In this document: piece after piece, positions 5,266-26,758 of the stretch
Layout: each line of letters opens with the position of its first letter
How positions within the stretch are numbered: the first letter of the stretch is position 1
Source: Gautieria morchelliformis
Lineage: Eukaryota > Basidiomycota > Agaricomycetes > Gomphales > Gomphaceae
Assembly: GCA_015179125.1 (NCBI GenBank)
Contig: WHVA01000095.1
Location: forward strand, 212,113-276,112
Reading direction: 5' to 3'
DNA length: 64,000 nucleotides
The notes under the pieces: generated by a model
Seen by the model: only the letters and a program-made list of their open reading frames with translations
What the model was told of the DNA's origin: nothing
Database searches by the model: none
Translations under genes and position numbers: made by a program

Positions 5266-5680
5266 ACTAAACACCCATCCGCTATATCGAGAACAAATAC
5301 AGGTATGCAGAGCTGTCTGGACGACGGTTAGGATCTATGTATATGGTTACACGATCACCCGTGCAGTTTCTTGAGTCGCTTCTTCCCGATGCATATGCTA
5401 TTCGAGCAGCAAGCCCGTCGTGCGCTGGGATGGAGGAAAACTGGGGCACATTTATTGAAATGGCAACGTCTGATGGTTTGGAAACTGCTCTGAGTGCAGA
5501 GTGGTAAAATAACCTATAGCCTCGATATAGGAATCTGATGTGGCACACGTGCCTCCGTCACAGACAAGATAAACTGAGTATACAGTGCAGCATATATTAC
5601 AGTAAGTACAGTAAAAATGGAAATGGGACCCAGTAAGAACCCAACATGTTGGCATCTGTCGGGACGGGAAAACTCTGGCT
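5266..5680 (+). pseudogene. Duplicated tail of the OMA1-like gene
   Basis: This is the second copy of the block at 1324-1765. It holds the NTHP-like exon end, the intron and the terminal exon with AYAIRAASPSCAGMEEN, closing at a TAA at 5505-5507. No upstream OMA1 exons accompany it. It abuts the fold-back cluster directly at 5265, so the duplication and the inverted repeats may have arisen in one rearrangement. Confidence 0.7.
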
Positions 5681-6278
5681 AGACCAGATAAGTGAGACAA
5701 TAGCAGCTGAGCGCAGAATGCGAGTGCGAGCAATATAGTACGTCGTGTAGCTGTAGTATGCTTAAGACCAAAGCAGACCAGCCCAGATTTAGCTAGAAGT
5801 CTTCTGAAAGCAGATCAGAACAGGTTAAAACATGCATACTATACACTTTTCGGTAGTTCACCGGGCGTGGGAACTTCGTACGATTAGTAATCAGTACCGA
5901 TCAAGCTGCAGCCCTGCAGATTATTTACACCGTTCGAAGCTGTCAACAACTTTGCTCACCCTCCGAACTCCCACAACTGGTACGCTCTTGTTCGGTCACC
6001 AGGTTTGGATGAAATTTCACACCAGGACACTTGACAAAGTAGAGGCCGCCACCAGCTATTGTAACCGTATCATTTCCGACTCGTGCTTGTAATCCTACGA
6101 CGTCTCTCTCTTGTATCTTATGGCTGGAATGTGAGTTGTTGTTTTCATATGGTGATGTTTTTAGTGCTGAATGGCCCTTGTGGTTCGCACTGACTGCAGC
6201 GTCGACATCATCTACCTGACGGCGGTACGTGGCTCCTGCTGACTCTGTCCCAGCCTCAGTCGCTCACCAGTCACCTCG

Positions 6279-6599
6279 ATGGCCATGCATACTCGGACAG
6301 ACGCTTCTCATTCTTGGAGGTGCCGTCGGTGCGTATATGACTGTTCGTGCTTAGTGAAAGTGCGACAGCTGACAGATCTTGGTACGGTGCGGTCAGCTGC
6401 AATACTCTTCGTCGTAAACTCAATTTCCGCGTTCACCTCGACGACAAAGGAGAAGCTTAAATCGAAGGGATATGACGTGTCTCGCAAGGGTGTTGCGGTG
6501 CAGACGCAGAAGCGGTTTAATCGGGAAGATTATGTGGATGCGACGCAGAGGTGGGCTCTCGTGTCTGGACCGGTGTTTGAGCTTTCATTTGACAATTAA
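6279..6599 (+). pseudogene. Unidentified fragment with a conserved-looking helix
   Basis: The most protein-like part is the segment STTKEKLKSKGYDVSRKG followed by FNREDYVDATQR. Its charge pattern and periodicity suggest a real protein rather than noise. I recall similar motifs from uncharacterised basidiomycete proteins but cannot name a family. The frame has an ATG at 6279 and a TAA at 6597-6599, with no extension in either direction. It is probably an exon of a decayed gene. There is no neighbour to suggest a role. Confidence 0.3.
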
Positions 6600-9500
6600 T
6601 TGCGCTGCGCTCTCTTGCACGGTGGTGACATTTGAACAACAGAGGGCTCGTCAAGGCGTTTGGTGCGTCATCGTATGGCAAAGCAAGCAGCGATGGTTCG
6701 GGCCCCTCGTCAGACAAATTACAAGTGAGCTGCATTATCCACGATCCCCGTTGCAGGAACCTTGTCCTCAGCTTTTTGTAGACCCCCGAGTCCGATCAGA
6801 CACTCAAAAAAACTCGTAGCGGACTACTTCGTCGGAAAGATAACAAGTCAAGCTGACTTTTATCGTCCGGCGCAAAACACGACGCATTTCCGGCTGCGTC
6901 ATGTCCTGTGCCTGATCGATGCACGATTATTGTCGTATGTATTGGATGTACGTTGCTTCTCTTCTAACAAGCTTGCTGGTTTGGTAGGTCTCACTTTCGA
7001 CTTGGCGAAAATACAGCTTGTTGTCTGCGCTGAAATTATTCTTGAACATACATACACTGTCCGTACTGTGACAGTACTAGTACTCACCATGCATGCCATG
7101 GATATATGTATTTGCACCTGAACTTCAAACTGTTATTATCTGTAATAACTTCAGAATTGCTTTGTGCGACCTTCGCCCTGCTTACTATTCGCTGTGATAA
7201 TGCTGAAGGTCGTGGTCAAACCAGTAAGTTTGGTACGGCCATTTCCACAAGTTTCGCTCCGATCGTATGTAGCCAATTTGTAGCCAGCGCAGCGCCCAGG
7301 ACCCTGCCTCCTTCTGTTTTTTCTTCTTTATGCAATATGACCGCCATAGGCAGGCATAAGTCGACGAATGCACATACGCCGGAAGTGCCGTCCCTAGCTC
7401 TTCTGGCAAGGTCTGAGCTGCATTTGACAAGGAACATGGCTGATAGGTTTCCAACCTTGCGCTATGACGGCCATCTTCGGGGGGAGCATGGATCAATGAA
7501 CAGCTTGTTGTAGATGCTAGGAGCGGATCGGTTCCTCGAAACGTCGCTTGTAGTACACGAGCGGCATAGATGTCGACAAGAATTTCCCGCAACTGAGCTT
7601 CTGGTTTCTATCGTCCCTTGCCTCTCTTGAGTATGGTCCCCTTCATGTAAGTTTGCGTAGACAAAATCTAGAGTGTGCAACTCATCGCTAAGTCCCAGTG
7701 GGGAATCGATGATGCTGATGAGGGTAGTCGTAGACCGATGTGCCACACACAGCCGGCTGGCGATGGACAAGGCTTGGCTGGTACGCAACGAATGGTGAAC
7801 TAGTCACGGTATGAGGCAATACGAGCAACAGACAACACCTGCGTCGTACGTCTCGTTGGGAGTGTTCGCCGTGGAGATGATATATTACCCCGGAGCCCCA
7901 TCGAGCGGGGGCGGTATTGAAAGATGCGTGCTCTTGCGCGATTCCGGGATCAGCGCTGTGCCCAACAACGAGATGTGCACCCAGCATCAAAAACGCCTGT
8001 ACTTCCGAATCCGGTACCCCTATTCAAGGCGCTAGCATTGCCGAGGACCGGTTTGAGTGCATCACTCGTCATCAGCCACGCCTGCGGCGAGGCTTTCGGA
8101 CGACTCGGACAAGGCACCATCGAACTCCCGATTCCCCGCTGAGACAGAGCATCATGCAACCAGGCCAGAGGCTGTGGGTAATGCGGCACAATTGACCATC
8201 GCTCAAGCATGGATGGACAACTTTGCAGTAGCATTAGGATGTATATAAGCTCACGATGCAGGTCGCTAAGATAATGGTGTCACGGAAATCCGAGCTGGGT
8301 GGAAATTGAATATAATCTCATATTCTTCATGTATCTGCTATACACAGCACGGATGGCGATCCATATGGCATGCTGAACACCCGGAATGGACTGCAACCAG
8401 AGTCTGGGAACTCATGTTGTCATGGTAGAAATGTGCCTGTTTTGGCAGTTCAGATCACACCAAGGCGGGATCCCCTTACAGTAATTTTCTGGGTTCACCT
8501 TCGTGTAATTGTTTTGTAAGTTGACGTGGGATAATGTAAGAGTGATAACGTGTACGATGCGTAAAATGGCAAGGAATATTAGTATGCACGCCAGGACTAG
8601 TAAGTTAGTAGCTCGAATACTCACAGAGACGGGCGTTGTCGCTGACAGTTGCCACCCGCTCCACACTGCAGCTCAGAATGTTCCTTGCCGGACAGACCTG
8701 GGCGGAAAGTATGTAAAGTTATGTAAGTACTTGATGTTGTGAGTGCCAGGTACTGACCTGGCATGCTGTACCGAGGCAAATTAGGGTTCAAATTTCCAAA
8801 CGTTCATGTACTTCGCAAGGACCAAGCCAGAAAAGCTCCGGTGGCGTGAGCCCTGTCGCTTGCACAGAATACCTTTTGGATCGCTGTCTCTCTCACCTGC
8901 ACCTGTACCGCAAGGCACACCGTGACGCGTGACATACTTGACTTGGCGATCGTCGGTTAGTTATACTTATATGGTTAGTCACGGACGGACGTAAGACGGC
9001 ACATCTGTGTGGTTCCACAGTCTAATCATGGGTCACAGGTGCGTATGATCCAGTGGTGTTTCCATTTTAGTTAATTATAATTCGGAGCCGCTACAAGTTG
9101 TGTTGCTTGCTAAGTCTTCATGCACGGGTTTAGCTGAATAGCATTCGGATAATGGTCTAGCCTGGCAGGTAGAATTAGTCACTATCACGGCAGACTATCA
9201 TGGTGGCAGTCGTTCGGGATTAGATACTTGAGTTACTAGTCTAGACGGTGTCTGAGGCCAGCCGCCAGTGCCACTGGCAGGGTTCGGTGGAAAGCTCAAT
9301 GTGCCTCCCGACGAACCCGCCGCCCCATTAATGGTCTCGGAGCCTGGAGGTTCCAAATCCCACATAAGTATGTGTGAGCTCGTCATTCGCTGGCGATTGG
9401 GCGGGTTCCTGACGAGCGTACCGCCACCGGATCTCAGTTTCCAACGGTTCTTTGGCCTGTTCGGGCCCCCAGGCGACCCGGCTGAGCAACCACATCAAAA

Positions 9501-17638: not shown

Positions 17639-17657
17639 GCTGTTCAACCAGCCCTAG

Positions 17658-18337
17658 TGTTACGACCGTTCATTTCCGACTTCCGACCCTCAGTTCCGCC
17701 ACTCCTTCCGCCCCTCCGATAGTTCCGTCACACGTTCCGCCCCTCCGACATTTCCGACATTCCGCCCCTTGTACATTTCCCTTGTTCTTTCGACTCTATT
17801 ACTCGGACCCACCGGACCCACCTCGCCATCCATCAAAACCATATATCCGGTCACCCTTGTAGTTCGTTGTCAGATATCTTTTCCCGACCCCTTGTTCTTT
17901 GCCATTGTTCTACCTTACCCTGAACCCCCCTTGTAGTCCCATTGTTCCCAATTAGTTAGTTCCCACACATTGTACTCGACTTCCGCTTCCTCCGGAATTT
18001 GTTTAGTACAACACCATTACTTGTTGCTCTGCGCTTTGTATAAAACCCCCTCATGTATGTCTGTTATTCTGCAATCAGATAATCACCTTCGATACTTGAT
18101 TTCCTTCGCTCCATCTCCTGTTCTTAGCACAGCGAGTCTAGCAAGATCTCAGTCCTTCCGTCTTCCGCCTTCCGCCTCAGTTCCGACTCAAGTTCCGACC
18201 AACCTCTAGTTCAGTACTTTCCGACTTCCGACTCAGTTCCGAAATACTTAGGACGATAGTTCATCGGGGGCGCAACCTATAAGTTGAAGCCGCCGTCCTT
18301 TCTAGTTCCGACTTAGTGGAAATCTCGATACGTAACA
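17658..18337 (+). repeat. 5' LTR of element A
   Basis: The 680-bp repeat starts TG and ends CA. It carries TATA at 18,039-18,045 and a probable transcript start at about 18,073. By eye it holds 18 TTCCG pentamers but only one CGGAA, far above chance. U3 is about 415 bp if the start is right, leaving about 265 bp of R-U5. Confidence 0.93.
18039..18083 (+). promoter_or_regulatory. TATA box and predicted transcript 5' end of element A
   Basis: TATAAAA at 18,039-18,045 is followed 34 bp later by aatcagataat at 18,073-18,083. That 11-mer is exactly complementary to the primer-binding site, which in Tf1 is the very first stretch of the mRNA. TATA spacing and self-complementarity therefore point to the same start site independently. 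The 3' LTR has the same arrangement at 25,340 and 25,375-25,385, one base further apart. Confidence 0.75.
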
Positions 18338-18339
18338 GT

Positions 18340-18350
18340 ATTATCTGATT
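18340..18350 (+). other. Self-priming primer-binding site of element A
   Basis: The bases attatctgatt begin two nucleotides after the 5' LTR and are perfectly complementary over 11 nt to 18,073-18,083 in the LTR. In Tf1 and relatives the mRNA 5' end folds back here, is cleaved, and primes minus-strand synthesis without a tRNA. I did not recognise a tRNA-complementary site at this position. Confidence 0.8.
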
Positions 18351-18370
18351 CCCACCCGATAACTATCACC

Positions 18371-21300
18371 ATGCCTCCTCGTACCACAGCAACTTCAGCT
18401 CGAGCAGGAGCTGTCGAAGCTCTCTCTTATTTTGGCAGTCTTAGATCCGCAGCACCAAGGCACGCGGAACCCTCCAGCAGCTCTCGTGCCGACGATGAGC
18501 TTTCCGATGCTTTTCCGCAACGTTTCGAAGAAGTTCCCGACGCTAATCCCGACGACAATCCCGACTACGACGGGAATTCGACGAGTAGCAGCGGCGAACA
18601 AACAGCAGCGTCATTCCGACGCCCAGCTCCACCACCACCACCTCCACCAGGACCACCTCCAGGCGGCCCTCCAGGCGGCCCTCATGGCGGCCCACCCGGC
18701 GGTCCCCCAGGCGGTCCTCCACCTCCAATTCCACCTCAGATTCCCGCCAACCCAGTTCCGCCCGCGCCAGTTCCGGATCTTGCACAAGCCATCGCCATGC
18801 TAGCCGGACAACTCCAGCGCCCGGCCCAAGCACCACCACGCCCCAAGACAAAGGTCCACGAACCAGATCAGTTCGACGGTTCCGACCCCAAGAAGCTCCA
18901 GCCATTTCTGGTCCAGCTTCAACTCAACTTCCGCCATCGTCCTGACGCGTTTCCCGACGACGAACGAAAGGTCAATTATGCCCTTTCCTATCTCCGAGGC
19001 ACGGCGCTCGACTACTTCGAACCCGCCCTCATGGATCCGTTCGCTCTCGTCGACTGGGCCGACGATTACCCCAATTTCATTTCCGAACTCCGCAGCAACT
19101 TCGGACCATTTGATATGGAAGCCGATGCGGAAAATGAACTCGATAAGCTTCGTATGAAAGACACTCATAAGATAGCTAAATATATCGTCACATTCCAGCA
19201 GCTCGCTCCTCGAGTCCAATGGGGAGAAGCCGCACTCCGACGCCAGTTTTACATGGGCTTGCCATCCCGCATCAAGGATGAAATTGCCCGCGTCGGAAAA
19301 CCCGCCACCCTTACCGACCTCCGCAACCTCGCTCAATCCATCGATTCACGCTACTGGGAAAGACACTCCGAGATCGCTCGCGAAACTTCCACCCAGAGCA
19401 AGAACGACAAGTCTTCCGACAAGAAGTCTGATAAAGACAAGAAGAAGACCAATTCCGGAAACACCAACCCGGAAACAACAACAACAGCTCCGGATCCAAC
19501 TCCGGCAACCGGAACAACAACAACACCCCTCGGAACAACCAGGCCTCTGGTTCTAACACCAACGCCCGGAAGAGCACCCCGGATCTTTCCGACAAACTTG
19601 GGAAGGACGGAAAACTAACCCCTGTAGAACGCCAGCGTCGCATGGACAACAACCTTTGCCTCTTCTGCGGCAAAGGAGGTCACGTCGCTCGCGACTGCAC
19701 TCGCGCTTCCGCCTCCGCTGCTAAGGCCAAGGGCCGCGCAGCAAAGACGGAAGAGAAATCCGAAGCGGTTCCCGCTGCGGATTCAAAAAAATAGTCAGCA
19801 GTCCTCCGGCCTCCGCACGAGCTGAGGGCTGTGTTGACCCCATTCGTGCGACAAACGAGGTTAAACTCAACGCATCCGCTCTTTCGTCCTCCGACTCTCT
19901 CTCTGTTCCGCTCACTTCCGACACCATTTCCGCACCCCCGTTTACAGCATTGGTCGACTCCGGTTCGACTCATTGTTTCCTCGATTCCGACTTTGTTTTG
20001 AAACATAAACTTCCGACCCGCAACATTCCGACTATTCCGCTCCGCCTTTTCGACGGGTCTTCCAACACGGGAATTTCCCAAGTTGTGGATCTGTCTATCC
20101 GTTTCGCTACTGGGGACAACCATGAAGTTACGTTTTACGTTACTCCGCTAGATGCTAGCTGTTCCGTTGTACTAGGACACAATTGGCTCACCCGATATAA
20201 TCCGTCGATTAACTGGGCATTGGGTCAAATACAGTTCCGTACCCCGGATCAACTTCCATCTATTCCGACGTCTTCTGCAAAGATGGCTCAGGCCTCTTCG
20301 CAACTCCGCTCGTGGATTCAGTTCCGCACTCCGGTCCCGCTTTAGCACCTCCGCCCCTCGAAGCTCCTCGAATTGCGCTCGTTTCCGCCATCGCTTTCCG
20401 CGTATTGCAAAGGCAAGATGATACGACCGTTTTCCAGCTTCACCTCTCCGATTCGGCTTCAGTCAAGGCTCGTTCCGCCTCGACTTCCGCTCCGGTCGAC
20501 ATGAGCTCAGTTCCGGAAGAATATCGCGACTTCCCGGACGTGTTCAATAAGGCCAAAGCCGACAAACCTGCTGAACATCGACCTTACGACTTGAAGATAG
20601 ATTTGGAAGAAGGAGCATCTCCGCCCCTTGGACCGATCTACTCTCTGTCGCAAAGTGAACTCCTAACTCTCCGAGAGTTCGTCGATGAACATCTCAACAT
20701 GGGCTTTATCCGCCCTTCGCTGTCTCCGCACGGCGCTCCGGTCCTCTTCGTCAAGAAGAAGGATGGATCTCTCCGCCTCTGCGTCGATTTCCGCGGACTC
20801 AATGCCCTCACTAAAAAGGACAAATATCCGCTTCCGCGCATTTCCGACTTACTCGACACTCCCCGCAGGGCGAAGATCTACACCAAAATTGACCTCCGGC
20901 ACGCTTATCACCTTGTCCGCATCCGGGAAGGTGACGAGTGGAAAACCACCTTCCGCACCCGCTACGGTGCTTTTGAGTGGACTGTCATGCCTTTTGGTCT
21001 AACCAATGCTCCCGCCGCTTTTCAGCGATTCATGAACGACGTATTTTCCGACCTCCTCGACGTATGCGTCCTAGTCTACATTGACGACATCCTCATCTAT
21101 TCCGACACACCGGAAAAACATCGGGAACATGTCCGCGAAGTACTCCGCCGTCTACGCAAACATCATCTCTATGCAAAAGCAGAGAAATGCGAATGGCATC
21201 GCGACACGGTCGAATACCTCGGCTACATCCTCTCTCCAACAGGTCTTACCATGGCAAGGACAAGGTCAAGGCAATTCAAGAATGGCCGGAACCCCGACGT

Positions 21301-23488
21301 GTTAAGGATGTGCAGTCTTTCCTTGGCTTCGCCAACTTTTACCGGCGTTTCATTTATAATTTTTCCGACATTACTGTTCCGCTCACGCGTCTCACCAGGA
21401 AGGGTGCCCCATGGAATTTCACACCGGAATGCCGTTCCGCATTTGAAGCTCTCAAATCGGCCTTCACCACGGCTCCCATACTCGGTTTCTGGATTCCTGA
21501 TGCCCAACTTGTACTCGAAACCGACGCTTCTGACTACGCGCTAGCCGCCATTCTTTCCATCATTTCACCCGACGACGGAGAAATTCATCCGATCGCCTTT
21601 CATTCCCGCACCTTTTCCGCCCCGGAACTCAACTACGACGTCCACGATAAGGAACTACTTGCGATTTTCGAAGCCTTCAAAATTTGGAGACACTACCTCG
21701 AAGGTCCAACTTATCCATCGACGTTGTAACGGATCATAAGAACCTTGAGTATTTTGCAACCACTAAGATTTTGACTCGCCGTCAAGTCCGCTGGTCTGAA
21801 TACTCTCACAGTTCAACATGGTGATCCGCTTCCGCCCCGGAAAGCTCGGAGCAAAACCCGACGCGCTCACTAGACGTTGGGACGTCTACCCAAAAGAGGG
21901 AAGTAGCGACTATGCCAGCGTTAATCCGCACAATTTCCGCCCAGTATTCTCCACTGAGCAACTGGCATCGTCCCTGCGTGCCACAGCATTGCAGTTTCCA
22001 CTACTCCGCGCCTCAATTATTATGGACACCGAGTCTCTCCATTCCGACATCCGTTCCGCACTCCGTTCCGACCCCACCTCCGCAGCCCACCTCGATGACC
22101 GCACCAGTCCTGGATGGTCCCTCGATTCCGACGGATTTCTCCGGTACAAGTCCCGGATTTACGTTCCGGACACCAACGATCTACGACTTCGCGTGCTCCA
22201 GCAAAGCCACGATCATCCGCTCTCAGGACACCAAGGCCAGAACAAGACCCTCGACATAATCCGACGACCTATACTTGGCCTCTCCTCCGCACGATGGTCC
22301 AAGACTACTGCAAGTCATGCACCACCTGTATGCGAGCCAAGCCTCAACGTCACAAACCCTACGGCCTCCTGAAGCAACTTCCGATCCCGGAACAACCGTG
22401 GAATTCGATATCCATGGATTTCATTGAGAAACTTCCTAAGTCATCCGGCTATGATACCATTCTAGTGATCGTTGACCGCCTTACAAAGCAGTCCATCTTT
22501 ATTCCGACCTACGACACCATAACTTCCGCCCAGCTCGCACAGCTCTTCGTGCTCCACGTCTTTTCCAAGCACGGAATACCTTCCCATGTCACTTCCGACC
22601 GTGGATCCGAATTCGTGTCATCCTTTTTCCGCACCCTCGGAAGGCTCTCGACATGAACTCCACTTCACTCCGGTTATCACCCGAAGGAGACGGACAACGG
22701 AACGTACTAATCAGACCCTTGAGCAGTATCTCCGCGTCTATTGCAACTACCAACATAGCAATTGGTCCGACCTTCTTCCGCTCGCGGAATTTGCCTACAA
22801 CAACGCGCCTTCCGCTACCACCGGAATTTCACCCTTTTATGCCAACAAGGGCTACCACCCGAATCTCGCCATCCACCCTGAACGCGACCTCGCCTCTGCA
22901 AGAGCCCGAGATTTCGTTGTGGAACTTGACGACCTTCACCAGCACCTCCGAGAGAACATTACCGCTGCCCAGAAGAGATACCAAACTTCCGCCGATCGGA
23001 AACGACTTCCGCAACCGGCATTCGAGATTGGCGACAAAGCCTTTGTCAAAGCGGAAAACTTCCGCACCACTCGCCCCTCGAAGAAACTCTCTGAGAAATA
23101 CCTCGGTCCTTACGAGATCATCGCTAAGGCCGGCAGTCGTTCTTTCACCCTCAGACTTCCTGACAATATGCGCGCAGTACATCCGGTATTCCATGTCTCC
23201 ATGCTTGAACCCGCAGTTCCGAATACAATTCCGAATCGAGAACAACCTCCGCCTCCGCCAGTCGTCATTGACGGAGAACCGGAATATGAGATCTCGGAAA
23301 TTCTCAACTCCAAGCTCGACAGAAGATACCGCTGCCAACTCCAGTACCTAGTCAAGTGGGCAGGCTATGAAAACACTGACGAAGAGACTTCGTGGATTTC
23401 CGCCACGGAACTTGACCACGCCTCTGACCTCGTCTCTGACTTTCACAAGTCATATCCTGATAAGCCTGGCCCCGTTTCCGCGCCCTAG
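18371..23488 (+). pseudogene. gag-pol of element A, multiply frameshifted
   Basis: Gag starts at ATG 18,371 with a proline/glycine-rich segment at about residues 87-120 and a retrotransposon Gag core after residue 160. The zinc knuckle CLFCGKGGHVARDC is in another frame at 19,657. Protease has VDSGSTHCF near 19,953. RT has YIDDILIY near 21,080. RNase H has [10 protein letters not shown]. Integrase has VTSDRGSEF and a C-terminal chromodomain (YEISEILN..., ending near 23,460). At least six frame changes are needed to link the parts: near 19,470, between 19,790 and 19,950, near 20,330, 21,270, 21,710, 22,260 and 22,640. An upstream stop also lies near 19,793. Some early shifts could be programmed, but most must be decay. 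The element cannot supply its own proteins from this copy. Confidence 0.88.
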
Positions 23489-23608
23489 TCAATTCCGACC
23501 CACTTCCGATACCCCCATTTCTTACGGTTCTTAAGTCACAACATTCCGCCTAATTTTCCATTATGATTTCCGACACTTCAAGAAACTATGTTACAAGTTA
23601 TTCGACCC

Positions 23609-24836
23609 CTACTCCTCCCTCATTGTCTCCGCCTCGACCCCTTTTTCCGCTTCCGGCTCTTTTTCCGCCTCCCCTACCTCGACACTCACCAACTCCGTTT
23701 CCACCCTTTCCCTCGTTTCCGCCCCACCGCTCGAACCAGCTTCCGCCCCATTTCCTTGCTCCCGCAGCCGCGCATCCATTCGGTCCCGGACCAGATCGTT
23801 CCGCCACCGCATTTCCCGCGTCAACTGCTGCAGGACGGTAGACATGACAGTCATCTGGTTCTGAATTGACAGAACCTGATGCTGCTGAACCTCGGACATC
23901 TCGATCATGATGTCCCGGATTTCACGCTGCTGTTCCCGCATGGCCCTCAGCGACCCGGCGATGTCGAGGAGCGGAGAAGCCATGGTGAACCGATTCAACA
24001 CCGCCTGTGCCGACTTTCCGGTCACCGGAAATGATTCCTCAGCCCTCCCTCCGCTCGGTCCCGGTTCCGCCTTCGGATTCGACTCCTCAACCTTCTGTTT
24101 CTTTCGCTCCAGCCTGGAAGCGCACCCGTCCACAACGCAGCGCCTTTTCCTGTCACGGCACTGGTCGCACGACGTTTCCCGTGGATTGCTCGACCACGAG
24201 CAATCCACCCCCTTAGACTCGCATGGGTCACAAGGGGCCTTTTCCTCTTCGCCGTCCCGAGTTTTCCGCTTCTTAGTCGCGGGATTTTCCGGCCCCAGTT
24301 CACGGAGTTCCAACATACGACTCAACTTCTCCTTTCGAGCCTTCTGGAATGCGTCCGCTCGACGTTTCCGTTCCGCCACAAGGTTCACCGGGGTCGCAAT
24401 CTCCTGTTGCTTCCCTTTTCCTTCCGGAGTCGGTGTACTTTCCGCCGAACCTTCCGAGTCTGACTCTGACTCGTCCTGAACATGATTCTGGAAGAACTCT
24501 AGTTAATTTCAAGATCATTTCCGCCGGACATTTCCGACTCACCTGATCCCTTTCCGCTTTCTCCGCAGCCGCTTTCTCTGCAGCAGCCTTGTCCGCAGCA
24601 GCCTTCCGTGCCGCGTTCCGTTTCCGTTTCTCTTCACGGACGCGCTCCTCCTCCTCGCGGCGTTCGCGCTCTTTCCTCTCCTGCTCCTTCCGCTCCTTCT
24701 CCCGACGTTCTTTCTCTTTCCGCGCAGCTTCCTCAGCCTCGCGTTTCTCGGCCATTTCCTTTTGCGCGAGCATATCAGCGAAGTGCTGTTTCATCTCCCC
24801 GCTGGACATCTTCGAGAAATCTACTGGGGCACTCAT
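23609..24836 (-). CDS. Antisense accessory protein of element A: coiled coil plus Zn2Cys6-type cysteine cluster
   Basis: Two exons on the minus strand, 24,836-24,543 and 24,487-23,609, join in phase across a 55-bp intron (GTGAGT..TTCCAG) to give an uninterrupted 390-aa protein. The N-terminal third is a highly charged K/E/R helix followed by AAADKAAAEKAAAEKAE. Next come an acidic linker, a basic stretch, and six cysteines at residues 184, 187, 194, 205, 208 and 215, that is CX2CX6CX10CX2CX6C, the Gal4-type spacing. Unlike typical Gal4 proteins, the basic CDQCRDRKRRC is in the second half. The C-terminal part is predicted helical and Gln/Met-rich. The gene lies between pol and the 3' LTR, with about 120 bp upstream for its own promoter. 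It is intact while gag-pol is not. DNA binding and any role in expression or silencing are inference. Confidence 0.8.
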
Positions 24837-24958
24837 GATGGAATAGAGAGAAAACGCGTTTGTCCTTCAGCCCATATTTCAAACTCCGACGCGTTTGTTC
24901 ACAGGTCACGTGATTCCGACTTGTGGTCTCGCAGGGCTCGACCTTAGAAGGGAGATAC

Positions 24959-25651
24959 TGTTACGACCGTTCATTTCCGACTTCCGACCCTCAGTTCCGC
25001 CACTCTTTCCACCTCTCCAATAGTTCCGCCACACGTTCCGCCCCTCCGACATTTCCGACATTCCGCCCCTTGTACATTTCCCTTGTTCTTTCGACTCGAT
25101 TACTCGGACCCACCGGACCCACCTCGCCATCCATCAAAACCATACATCCGGTCACCCTTGTAGTTCGTTGTCAGATATGTTTTCCCGACCCCTTGTTCTT
25201 TGCCATTGTTCTACCTTACCCTGAACCCCCCTTGTAGTCCCATTGTTCTCAATTAGTTAGTTCCCACACATTGTACTCGACTTCCGCTTCCTCCGGAATT
25301 TGTTTAGTACAACACCATTACTTGTTGCTCTGCGCTTTGTATAAAAACCCCCTCATGTATGTCTGTTATTCTGCAATCAGATAATCACCTTCGATACTTG
25401 ATTTCCTTCGCTCCATCTCCTGTTCTTAGCACAGCGAGTCTAGCAAGATCTCAGTCTCTCTCTCAGCCTTCCGTCTTCCGCCTTCCGCCTCAGTTCTGAC
25501 TCAAGTTCCGACCAAACCTCTGGTCCAGTACTTTCCGACTTCCGGCTCATTTCCGAAATACCTAGGACGATAGTTCATTGGGGGCGCAACCTATAAGTTG
25601 AAGCCGCTGTCCTTTCCAGTTCCGACTTAGTGGAAATCTCGATACGTAACA
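24959..25651 (+). repeat. 3' LTR of element A
   Basis: The 693-bp copy of 17,658-18,337 carries about 20 substitutions, an insertion near 25,455 and one extra A in the TATA region. It holds 16 TTCCG and one CGGAA by eye. Directly after it comes the interrupted integrase of element B, cut just after the codons for DRVYLS. Confidence 0.93.
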
Positions 25652-26758
25652 GAGTGGACAGGTATACGCGGTCGCCGACCACGTACGTGTCACTATCCCG
25701 GCGTTTCTTATTTGCTTGAAATGCCTGCGACACTCGGTGCTCCAGTATAGCATCGTGTGCCAGCATCAGGTTCCAGCGAGCTTGTTGTGCGAACCGGGAC
25801 ACCCCCTTGAATGGGGTGTCCGTTGTCATGGGCATGTCTATCCTCGGCATGTACCCGTGGTTCAGCTCGAAGGGAGCGAACCCTGTTGTGGCACTGACGT
25901 TGCTGTTGATGGCCATTTCGACCATCGGGCACCTGTGTGCCCAGTCCTTCTGGTCGTCTCTGATGACCGTTCGTAGGACCTGTCCAATCGAGCGGTTGGC
26001 CCGCTCGGTGGCTCCATCCGTTTGTGGATGGAACGCAGTCGCCATGAGGAGCTTGGTCCCCATGAGCCGCTGAAATTCACGCCAGAAGATTGACGTGAAC
26101 TTTGAGTCTCGATCCGAGACGATGGAGTCGGTGACTCCGTGGAGTCTGACGACTTCCTTGAGGAATAGCCAGGCTACTTCCTTCGCGGTGACCCTCGTCG
26201 TTGTTGGGACAAGGTGGACGTGTGAAGTTAGCCTGTCTATGATTACCATGAGGTAATCACAGCCGTCTGGATTGGGCATTGGTCCCATGAAGTCGATTCC
26301 GATCGACTGCCATGGCCTGTCTGGGATGGGCAGGCTGTGTAGCAGGCCTTTGGGCTTTTGGGTGCCAGTTTTGTTCATCTGGCACCTCGTGCACGAGATG
26401 CAAAATGTCTCGATGTCGGGGCCCATGCCTTGCCACCAGTATGCTCTTCGAATATAATTCGAAGTCTTCATGTGGCCGTAGTGGCCCACGGTCCTGTGTG
26501 CGTGATTGATTATGATTTCGATCAGTCTCCTTCCCCCGTGGAAAACAGTCCAGGCGACGGTGATGACATCGCGTTTGAGCTGATTCTTTGTCCATATCAG
26601 CCCGTCCTTGATGCCGAACCTGGGGTGGGCCTCTGGGTGTGCCATGATTTTTGAAAACATGGCGTCTTTGTGGTATGCGTCGCGCAGGACCTTCGGCAGG
26701 TCCATGTCGCCTTCGGCGCTCACGCGCAGCGGTGTACCGTCATTGCCTGCAGCGATGG
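25652..26758 (-). pseudogene. Integrase part of element B pol
   Basis: The frame runs from RVSAEGDMDLPKVLRDAYHK through the zinc-binding HRTVGHYGH..CISCTRC module, the catalytic core with SIGIDFMGP, IVSDRDSKF and the downstream Glu helix, to DRVYLS, where element A begins. No stop interrupts it. It was separated from its RNase H by the solo LTR at 26,759-27,468. The protein is therefore truncated at both ends. Confidence 0.85.

What the first reader, a model, noticed from the sequence alone, without database searches (positions are those of the whole stretch)
17658..25651. Element A is saturated with the oriented pentamer TTCCG
Seen, counted by eye: 18 TTCCG and 1 CGGAA in the 680-bp 5' LTR, 16 and 1 in the 3' LTR, about 30 and about 3 across the antisense gene region, roughly 12 and 9 in gag. 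The 2.9-kb synthetase gene at 10.25 kb has about 3 and 4. The orientation bias in the LTRs and the antisense-gene region persists where coding switches strand, so codon use cannot explain it. Inference: motif accumulation by selection at the DNA level. Arabidopsis VANDAL transposons accumulate short motifs recognised by their own VANC anti-silencing proteins. Here a Zn2Cys6-like protein (a class that reads CGG/CCG triplets) is encoded in the same element, suggesting a comparable self-recognition or anti-silencing system in a fungal LTR retrotransposon.
Basis: partly seen in the sequence, partly recalled or inferred. Interest (0 to 1): 0.92.

Follow-up and report, generated by a model that had tools for sequence, protein, structure and literature searches.

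The report
Fungal retrotransposon saturated with TTCCG
A fungal jumping gene carries about 150 copies of one five-letter DNA word along its whole length, kept by natural selection even inside its protein-coding genes, and it also carries a backwards gene for a possible DNA-binding protein that could read that word.

Summary
The 8-kb Ty3/gypsy element holds 121 TTCCG and 30 CGGAA, z about 21 for TTCCG against dinucleotide shuffles; flanks have about 1 per kb. Codon-preserving shuffles still leave an excess of both words in gag and (7 of 8 copies) pol, and of CGGAA in the antisense coding strand. This points to double-stranded DNA, not RNA or codon use; in coding DNA the sense bias is largely codon opportunity. 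Between two antisense-gene lineages near synonymous saturation (dS 0.85-1.55), the window copy's TTCCG sites are kept 1.8-3.5 times as often as NNNCG controls, although motif CpGs mutate as fast as other CpGs in resident copies: selection, not a cold spot. The antisense gene is under purifying selection (dN/dS 0.11-0.31). Its protein has a Zn2Cys6-like cluster whose two halves look swapped, plus a long helix. None of 34 other gypsy contigs is enriched in TTCCG; one unrelated family in this genome has it in LTR arrays only. Self-recognition by this protein is the best but untested explanation; anti-silencing is one of several possible outcomes.

The parts
17658..25651 (+). Ty3/gypsy LTR retrotransposon with TTCCG/CGGAA sites along its whole length (121/30)
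   Evidence: largest gap between sites 275 bp
17658..18338 (+). 5' LTR; TTCCG clusters at 17674-17764 and 18156-18241, TATAAA at 18039
18371..19618 (+). gag (Retrotrans_gag, Ty3_capsid); 11 TTCCG, 9 CGGAA
20312..21544 (+). reverse transcriptase part of pol (pol in several frames in this copy)
22586..23488 (+). C-terminal pol with Tf2-1-like SH3 and chromodomain
24543..24836 (-). antisense gene, exon 1 (charged helical stretch)
   Evidence: splice sites inferred
24488..24542 (-). inferred 55-bp intron of the antisense gene; 2 TTCCG
23609..24487 (-). antisense gene, exon 2: six-cysteine cluster and long C-terminal helix
24071..24304 (-). zinc-cluster-like domain, C-x2-C-x6-C-x10-C-x2-C-x6-C
24959..25651 (+). 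3' LTR; TTCCG cluster 24975-25065 lies 140-230 bp upstream of the antisense start codon

Best explanation
TTCCG/CGGAA is a double-stranded DNA recognition site that this Ty3/gypsy family has accumulated over its whole length, through synonymous choice in coding DNA and partly through small local duplications in the LTRs, and that selection keeps in the active lineage. SHOWN: excess of the word on both strands, excess at the synonymous level, retention beyond matched controls, no mutational cold spot, absence of comparable enrichment in the other families examined, and a co-resident antisense gene under purifying selection. It would coat any DNA that carries the dense sites and so tell its own copies from host DNA; the 3' LTR cluster beside the antisense start codon suggests that it also tunes its own promoter. 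MOST LIKELY OUTCOME (inferred, weakest step): keeping the element's chromatin open or its promoters active against host silencing. Less likely outcomes: copy-number repression or handling of the cDNA.
For: Dinucleotide and Markov nulls. Codon-preserving null: TTCCG z 4.8-9.7 in eight pol copies or pieces and 6.5 in gag; CGGAA z 5.7 in gag, 0.8-5.7 in pol; antisense CDS 21 CGGAA against 9.3. Retention between cassette lineages 14, 14, 14, 11 and 9 of 27 against 22, 16, 14, 14 and 17 of 94 controls; beyond codon usage at unchanged amino acids in 9 of 10 ordered pairs tried, of 56 possible. No cold spot. Antisense gene dN/dS 0.11-0.31 in 28 pairs; six cysteines in 35 of 35 loci, one of them the window copy. 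TTCCG z -2.5 to 1.9 in 34 other gypsy contigs.
Against: No binding, expression or methylation data. Pfam zinc-cluster score below cut-off for the window protein and above it in only 2 of 6 isolated domains; AlphaFold gave no confident cluster. Motif CpGs decay like other CpGs, so resident copies show no protection. L071, without a detected zinc-cluster gene, has TTCCG arrays in its LTRs. In the case of 11 of 30 ordered cassette pairs the retention test was not below p 0.05, and in pol 12 of 15 forward comparisons were not. A sister pol family that could test the pairing of gene and motif was not read.
Confidence: 0.5

Rival explanations
1. A host zinc-cluster or other transcription factor binds TTCCG and the element collects sites as enhancers; the antisense gene is unrelated to the motif.
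For: Clusters lie in the LTRs around the TATA box; the unrelated L071 family has TTCCG arrays in its LTRs only.
Against: Sites are selected throughout gag, pol and the antisense gene, where enhancers are not needed; in the seven other pieces of the window TTCCG is not among the top six pentamers.
Confidence: 0.22
2. The word works in RNA: UUCCG in the genomic RNA serves packaging, Gag binding or RNA stability.
For: Strong sense bias in LTRs, pol and antisense region.
Against: CGGAA is as enriched as TTCCG in gag (9 against 2.1; 11 against 2.4) and is also raised in 7 of 8 pol copies at z 2.6 or more; per-neighbour enrichment in gag and pol is similar on both strands.
Confidence: 0.08
3. The antisense protein binds the word but as a repressor or copy-number control, or to handle cDNA, not to open chromatin.
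For: Whole-length sites suit coating of cDNA as well as of chromatin; two antisense cassette lineages sit on similar backbones, as an immunity-like system might show; motif CpGs in resident copies are not protected.
Against: No data separate these outcomes; both cassette types keep the same word and cluster, which does not fit type-specific immunity.
Confidence: 0.2
4. Composition, tandem duplication or mutation bias produced the word without selection.
For: The sense strand is C-rich (34% C, 20% G); the LTR clusters contain short tandem units.
Against: Dinucleotide, second-order and codon-preserving nulls all leave an excess; rare changes do not spare motif CpGs; retention is raised at synonymous level.
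Confidence: 0.05

Closest known systems
VANDAL transposons with VANC anti-silencing proteins, Arabidopsis (PMC5735166, passages seen; PMC10398659, abstract and section list seen)
   Same: A mobile element dense in one short word, in one orientation in its noncoding parts, next to its own extra protein gene; the word is rare in other elements.
   Different: VANDALs are DNA transposons; VANC words are longer, lie mainly in noncoding DNA and spread by tandem repeats; VANC binding and hypomethylation were shown by experiment. Here the word fills coding DNA too, is mostly not tandem, and nothing has been shown by experiment.
Retand/Grande/RIRE2 plant LTR elements with antisense ORFs between pol and 3' LTR (PMC11963269 and PMC7264820, passages seen)
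   Different: Plants; TRP28 instead of a zinc cluster; no dispersed word reported in the passages seen.
Boty-like gypsy elements of Botrytis with antisense gene brtn (cited in PMC8365987 and PMC7264820, passages seen; original paper not seen)
   Same: A fungal gypsy element with an extra antisense gene.
   Different: Ascomycete; relation of BRTN to this protein not tested.
Fungal Zn2Cys6 proteins such as Gal4, Pho7 and AlcR (PMC5559640, passages seen)
   Same: Six-cysteine spacing, a downstream helix, CGG-containing sites; AlcR is cited there as binding DNA as a monomer.
   Different: The halves of the cluster appear in swapped order, with the basic stretch in the second half; the gene belongs to a retroelement.

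Membership tests
VANDAL/VANC anti-silencing system | MULE-type DNA transposon carrying a VANC gene | tested here: not met
   Element is Ty3/gypsy with gag, RT and chromodomain; the only Pfam family near its cut-off in the antisense protein is Zn_clus
VANDAL/VANC anti-silencing system | High density of one short word, same orientation | tested here: met
   TTCCG 18/1 and 16/1 in LTRs, 28/1 in the antisense region; but 11/9 in gag and 37/17 in pol
VANDAL/VANC anti-silencing system | Word accumulated in noncoding DNA as tandem repeats | tested here: not met
   Enriched in coding DNA at synonymous level; short tandem units at some LTR, pol and antisense clusters only
VANDAL/VANC anti-silencing system | Protein binds the word and removes methylation | not testable with these tools
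   Indirect only: motif CpGs decay like other CpGs
Zn2Cys6 (Pfam PF00172 Zn_clus) | Six cysteines in C-x2-C-x6-C-x5-12-C-x2-C-x6-8-C (spacing recalled) | tested here: met
   35 of 35 loci
Zn2Cys6 (Pfam PF00172 Zn_clus) | Pfam curated score | tested here: inconclusive
   Window protein 13.5-13.9 bits against 21; isolated domains 2 of 6 above 21
Zn2Cys6 (Pfam PF00172 Zn_clus) | Canonical order of the halves, basic residues in the first | tested here: not met
   First triplet aligns with profile positions 8-36, second with 1-13; weak matches
Zn2Cys6 (Pfam PF00172 Zn_clus) | Fold | tested here: inconclusive
   AlphaFold pLDDT under 60 across the cluster in two jobs
Ty3/gypsy chromodomain element | Ty3-type gag, RT, integrase-end chromodomain, LTRs | tested here: met
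   relatives with integrase domains
Retand-type antisense ORF | TRP28 domain (PF04195) | tested here: not met
   No PF04195 match in Pfam scans
Boty brtn antisense gene | Sequence homology to BRTN | not tested
   No BRTN sequence at hand

The most novel reading that the evidence does not exclude
An LTR retrotransposon has written a self-identity code into its own DNA. A zinc-cluster protein with swapped halves, made from its antisense gene, reads TTCCG on either strand, and selection has pushed the word through every gene by synonymous codon choice, so that any copy is recognised and kept active along its whole length. It would be a self-recognition system in a fungus and in an LTR element, where my searches listed none. 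L095, an unrelated gypsy with dispersed TTACG, hints that other families may carry words of their own.
Probability: 0.35. Interest if true: 0.9.

Novelty: new variant of a known kind. Interest (0 to 1): 0.78.

Why it matters
Motif-guided self-recognition by a mobile element has been worked out for a group of plant DNA transposons. A fungal retrotransposon with selection on one five-letter word through its coding DNA would mean that the strategy arises in unrelated elements. It would also give a genome-only test (saturation with a word beyond codon-preserving shuffles) for finding other cases, and a short protein-DNA pair that can be assayed. It also shows selection on synonymous sites of a mobile element that is still visible near synonymous saturation.

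Tried and rejected
Compositional artefact: rejected by three nulls. Mutational cold spot: rejected. RNA-level motif: disfavoured because CGGAA is as enriched as TTCCG in gag. Helical-phase array: pair distances show a peak at 12 bp (11 pairs) and no 10-bp series. Extended motif: sense sites prefer A or C, then C, after the pentamer; reverse sites do not, so the core is the pentamer. The 10-bp TTCCG arrays are of the kind seen in the LTRs of L071 and are hardly commoner in the genome than the reversed control pattern (111 against 99). Homologues of the antisense protein: none at E 0.001 in two protein searches (the first used residues 130-310 only, the second scored a capped 7,997 candidates), none in viral contigs. 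PDB sequence matches: none for the cluster, one irrelevant weak hit for the helix. Structure of the cluster not confident, so no fold search was run. Viral contigs gave no pol relatives. Literature: ten searches listed no report of a motif-saturated fungal LTR element with a zinc-cluster antisense gene; only open-licence PMC papers are held there, and passages or abstracts of six papers were seen.

Full report
THE THING. The window (G000:C1059:212113-276112 of an unnamed 122-Mb assembly) holds an 8-kb Ty3/gypsy element at 17658-25651 with LTRs of 681 and 693 bp that are 97% alike, gag, a pol region with RT, a Tf2-1-like SH3 and a chromodomain, and, between pol and the 3' LTR, a gene on the other strand. 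Among the best pol relatives three carry fungal species names: Leucocoprinus birnbaumii (71%), Pisolithus tinctorius (63%) and Lentinula edodes (63%); most have no name and one is filed under a bacterial MAG. The host is therefore most likely a mushroom-forming basidiomycete (inference). Pol in this copy lies in several frames; the antisense gene is open over 390 aa after removal of one 55-bp intron (splice sites inferred from the sequence).

OBSERVATION. TTCCG is present 121 times and CGGAA 30 times, against about one per kb outside. Over the element with one LTR, TTCCG is 105 against 17.8 +/- 4.0 and CGGAA 29 against 9.1 +/- 2.9 in 500 dinucleotide shuffles. In seven other pieces of the window (7-9 kb each) the top pentamer reaches z 4.0 to 7.9; in the element it is TTCCG at 20.7, in the copies L069 and L070 it is TTCCG at 22.7 and 16.9. 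In L071, an unrelated gypsy of the same genome, the top pentamer is TCCGT at 8.4 and TTCCG reaches 6.1, from 10-bp arrays in its LTRs; its interior has 6 TTCCG against 3.5 expected. In 34 gypsy contigs from other sources (relatives at 23-48% identity filed under prokaryote records) TTCCG z runs from -2.5 to 1.9, CGGAA reaches at most 3.4, and the top pentamer of each reaches z 4.3 to 10.5.

DNA-LEVEL SELECTION. (1) With amino acids and codon counts held fixed, TTCCG in eight pol copies or pieces is 12 to 41 against 4.1 to 13.6 expected (z 4.8-9.7), in gag 11 against 2.4 (z 6.5). CGGAA in gag is 9 against 2.1 (z 5.7), in pol z 0.8 (L045) to 5.7. In the antisense CDS CGGAA on its own strand is 21 against 9.3 (z 5.1). 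With the same null the best pentamer of any kind in 33 control ORFs (32 of the 34 gypsy contigs, and L071) reaches z 3.2 to 6.6; TTCCG reaches 9.7 in L063 and 7.4 in L069. (2) The antisense cassette exists in two old lineages. Of 147 hits, 67 have 85-100% identity to the window protein, 75 have 60-74%, and 5 lie between (more matches were not listed, and some hits are partial). Between the lineages dS is 0.85-1.55 and dN/dS 0.13-0.31; over all 28 pairs of 8 sequences dN/dS is 0.11-0.31. In this near-saturated DNA the TTCCG sites of the window copy are kept in 14, 14, 14, 11 and 9 of 27 cases in L069, L070, L072, L073 and L074, against 22, 16, 14, 14 and 17 of 94 NNNCG controls; over all 30 ordered pairs p is below 0.05 in 19 and not in 11 (the pairs are not independent). 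At codons whose amino acids are unchanged the motif is kept beyond codon usage (p below 0.05) in 9 of 10 ordered pairs tried, of 56 possible. (3) Among 29 close copies, rare CpG transitions hit motif CpGs (24 of 1293 site-copies) as often as other CpGs (51 of 3095; p 0.61), so the motif is not a cold spot; CpG sites changed in more than two copies are 2 of 47 in the motif and 16 of 123 elsewhere. In 15 pol loci compared with the intact copy L063, retention of the motif from L063 is mostly like the control (p below 0.05 in 3 of 15), while motifs still present in the other copy are found in L063 more often than controls (11 of 15). I read this as the active lineage keeping the motif while dead copies lose it. 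Across the aligned cassettes and LTRs the commonest one-base alternatives are TTCCA and TTCTG (147 of 242 cells), as CpG deamination would give.

ORIENTATION. In coding DNA the fold excess over the codon null is similar on both strands, so the bias there mostly reflects what the codons allow. Sites per one-mismatch neighbour are 0.39 forward and 0.56 reverse in gag, 0.50 and 0.35 in the PR-IN region, but 1.20 and 0.13 in the LTR and 0.62 and 0.05 in the antisense region. LTR clusters contain local duplications of 7, 12 and 29 bp. Enrichment on both strands in coding DNA is what a reader of double-stranded DNA predicts, and it argues against an RNA signal.

THE CANDIDATE READER. Six cysteines in C-x2-C-x6-C-x10-C-x2-C-x6-C are present in 35 of 35 loci, one of them the window copy itself, and a seventh in all 12 sequences aligned. 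Pfam Zn_clus scores are near the cut-off: below it for the window protein, above it in 2 of 6 isolated domains. The first triplet aligns with the C-terminal part of the profile and the second with its N-terminal part, so the two halves look swapped; this rests on weak matches. A helix over residues 170-249 of exon 2 is predicted, with pLDDT of 90 or more in the blocks from 181 to 240; the cluster is not predicted with confidence. No relative was found among 5.8 billion proteins at E 0.001, although 7,939 of 7,980 scored pol candidates were relatives: the gene is a lineage-specific addition or evolves beyond reach of this search.

CASSETTE EXCHANGE. The window copy and L069 are 94-100% alike per 250-bp window along LTRs, gag and pol, but 70-83% alike in 23.4-24.9 kb. 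In 31 copies where an antisense hit and an RT hit could be paired by position (the window included), 11 carry the window's cassette type and 20 the other; 8 of the 11 and 14 of the 20 have RT identity of 93% or more to the window. So the cassette has moved between backbones, probably by recombination (inference). Both types keep the cluster and the motif.

GENOME CONTEXT. Triple TTCCG clusters number 21,761 (overlaps counted), the reversed control pattern 1,299. Of 15 cluster strings that I picked from the 100 listed places, all on one contig, 11 match family copies at 91% or better, one is L071-type (89%), one (68%) lies next to a family LTR, and two are unassigned at 74-75%. The exact first 15 bases of the LTR occur 729 times.

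MECHANISM. Shown: a selected DNA word, not found enriched in this way in the other families examined, beside a selected gene. Inferred: that the gene's protein reads the word. Zinc clusters typically read CGG triplets, and monomeric binding is cited for AlcR (PMC5559640, passages seen); CGGAA contains one CGG. Inferred and weaker: the outcome. Sites about every 53 bp, never more than 275 bp apart, suit coating of chromatin or cDNA better than ordinary promoter control. Anti-silencing is the closest worked example (VANC; PMC5735166, passages seen), but CpG decay gives no sign that resident copies are protected, which fits only if the protein acts transiently in active copies.

LIMITS. The family comparisons come from one genome; a sister pol family could not be read; no binding, expression or methylation data were available; p values across overlapping pairs are not independent.

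Noticed in passing
L095:1-6908 (contig JAPYPR010000051.1, filed as Erythrobacter MAG): An unrelated gypsy element has dispersed oriented TTACG: 37 against 11 CGTAA, dinucleotide z 10.5, codon z 5.7 in pol (20 against 6.7), 12:1 in 5404-6908; gag is not enriched (3 against 2.1). Possibly a second family with its own word.
   Followed up: partly
L079 and L080, longest ORF: CATAC 14 against about 4 expected by codon shuffles in both (z 6.6 and 6.0), the highest among the 33 control ORFs.
   Followed up: no
L071:886-1305 and 7083-7484: Unrelated gypsy of the same genome with 10-bp TTCCGTCAN arrays in its LTRs and no enrichment inside.
   Followed up: partly
window 23450-24900 against L069: Antisense cassette 70-83% alike in elements otherwise 94-100% alike; two old cassette lineages sit on similar backbones.
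   Followed up: yes
L070 LTR pair: All 11 differences between its two LTRs are CpG transitions, against 5 of 18 in the window copy and 3 of 22 in L069: a methylation-like decay signature in one copy.
   Followed up: no
window 17641-17657 and 25652-25668: No target-site duplication flanks the window copy, while L070 seems to have a 5-bp one (CTACC); the window copy may be a recombinant.
   Followed up: no
G000:C200:175712, C182:214123, C376:121164, C826:274783 and others: A sister pol family with a 1249-aa open frame shares the genome; its antisense gene and TTCCG content are unread.
   Followed up: no
G000:C1:128544 and C1:364715: Two TTCCG clusters match the family at only 74-75% and are unassigned.
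   Followed up: no
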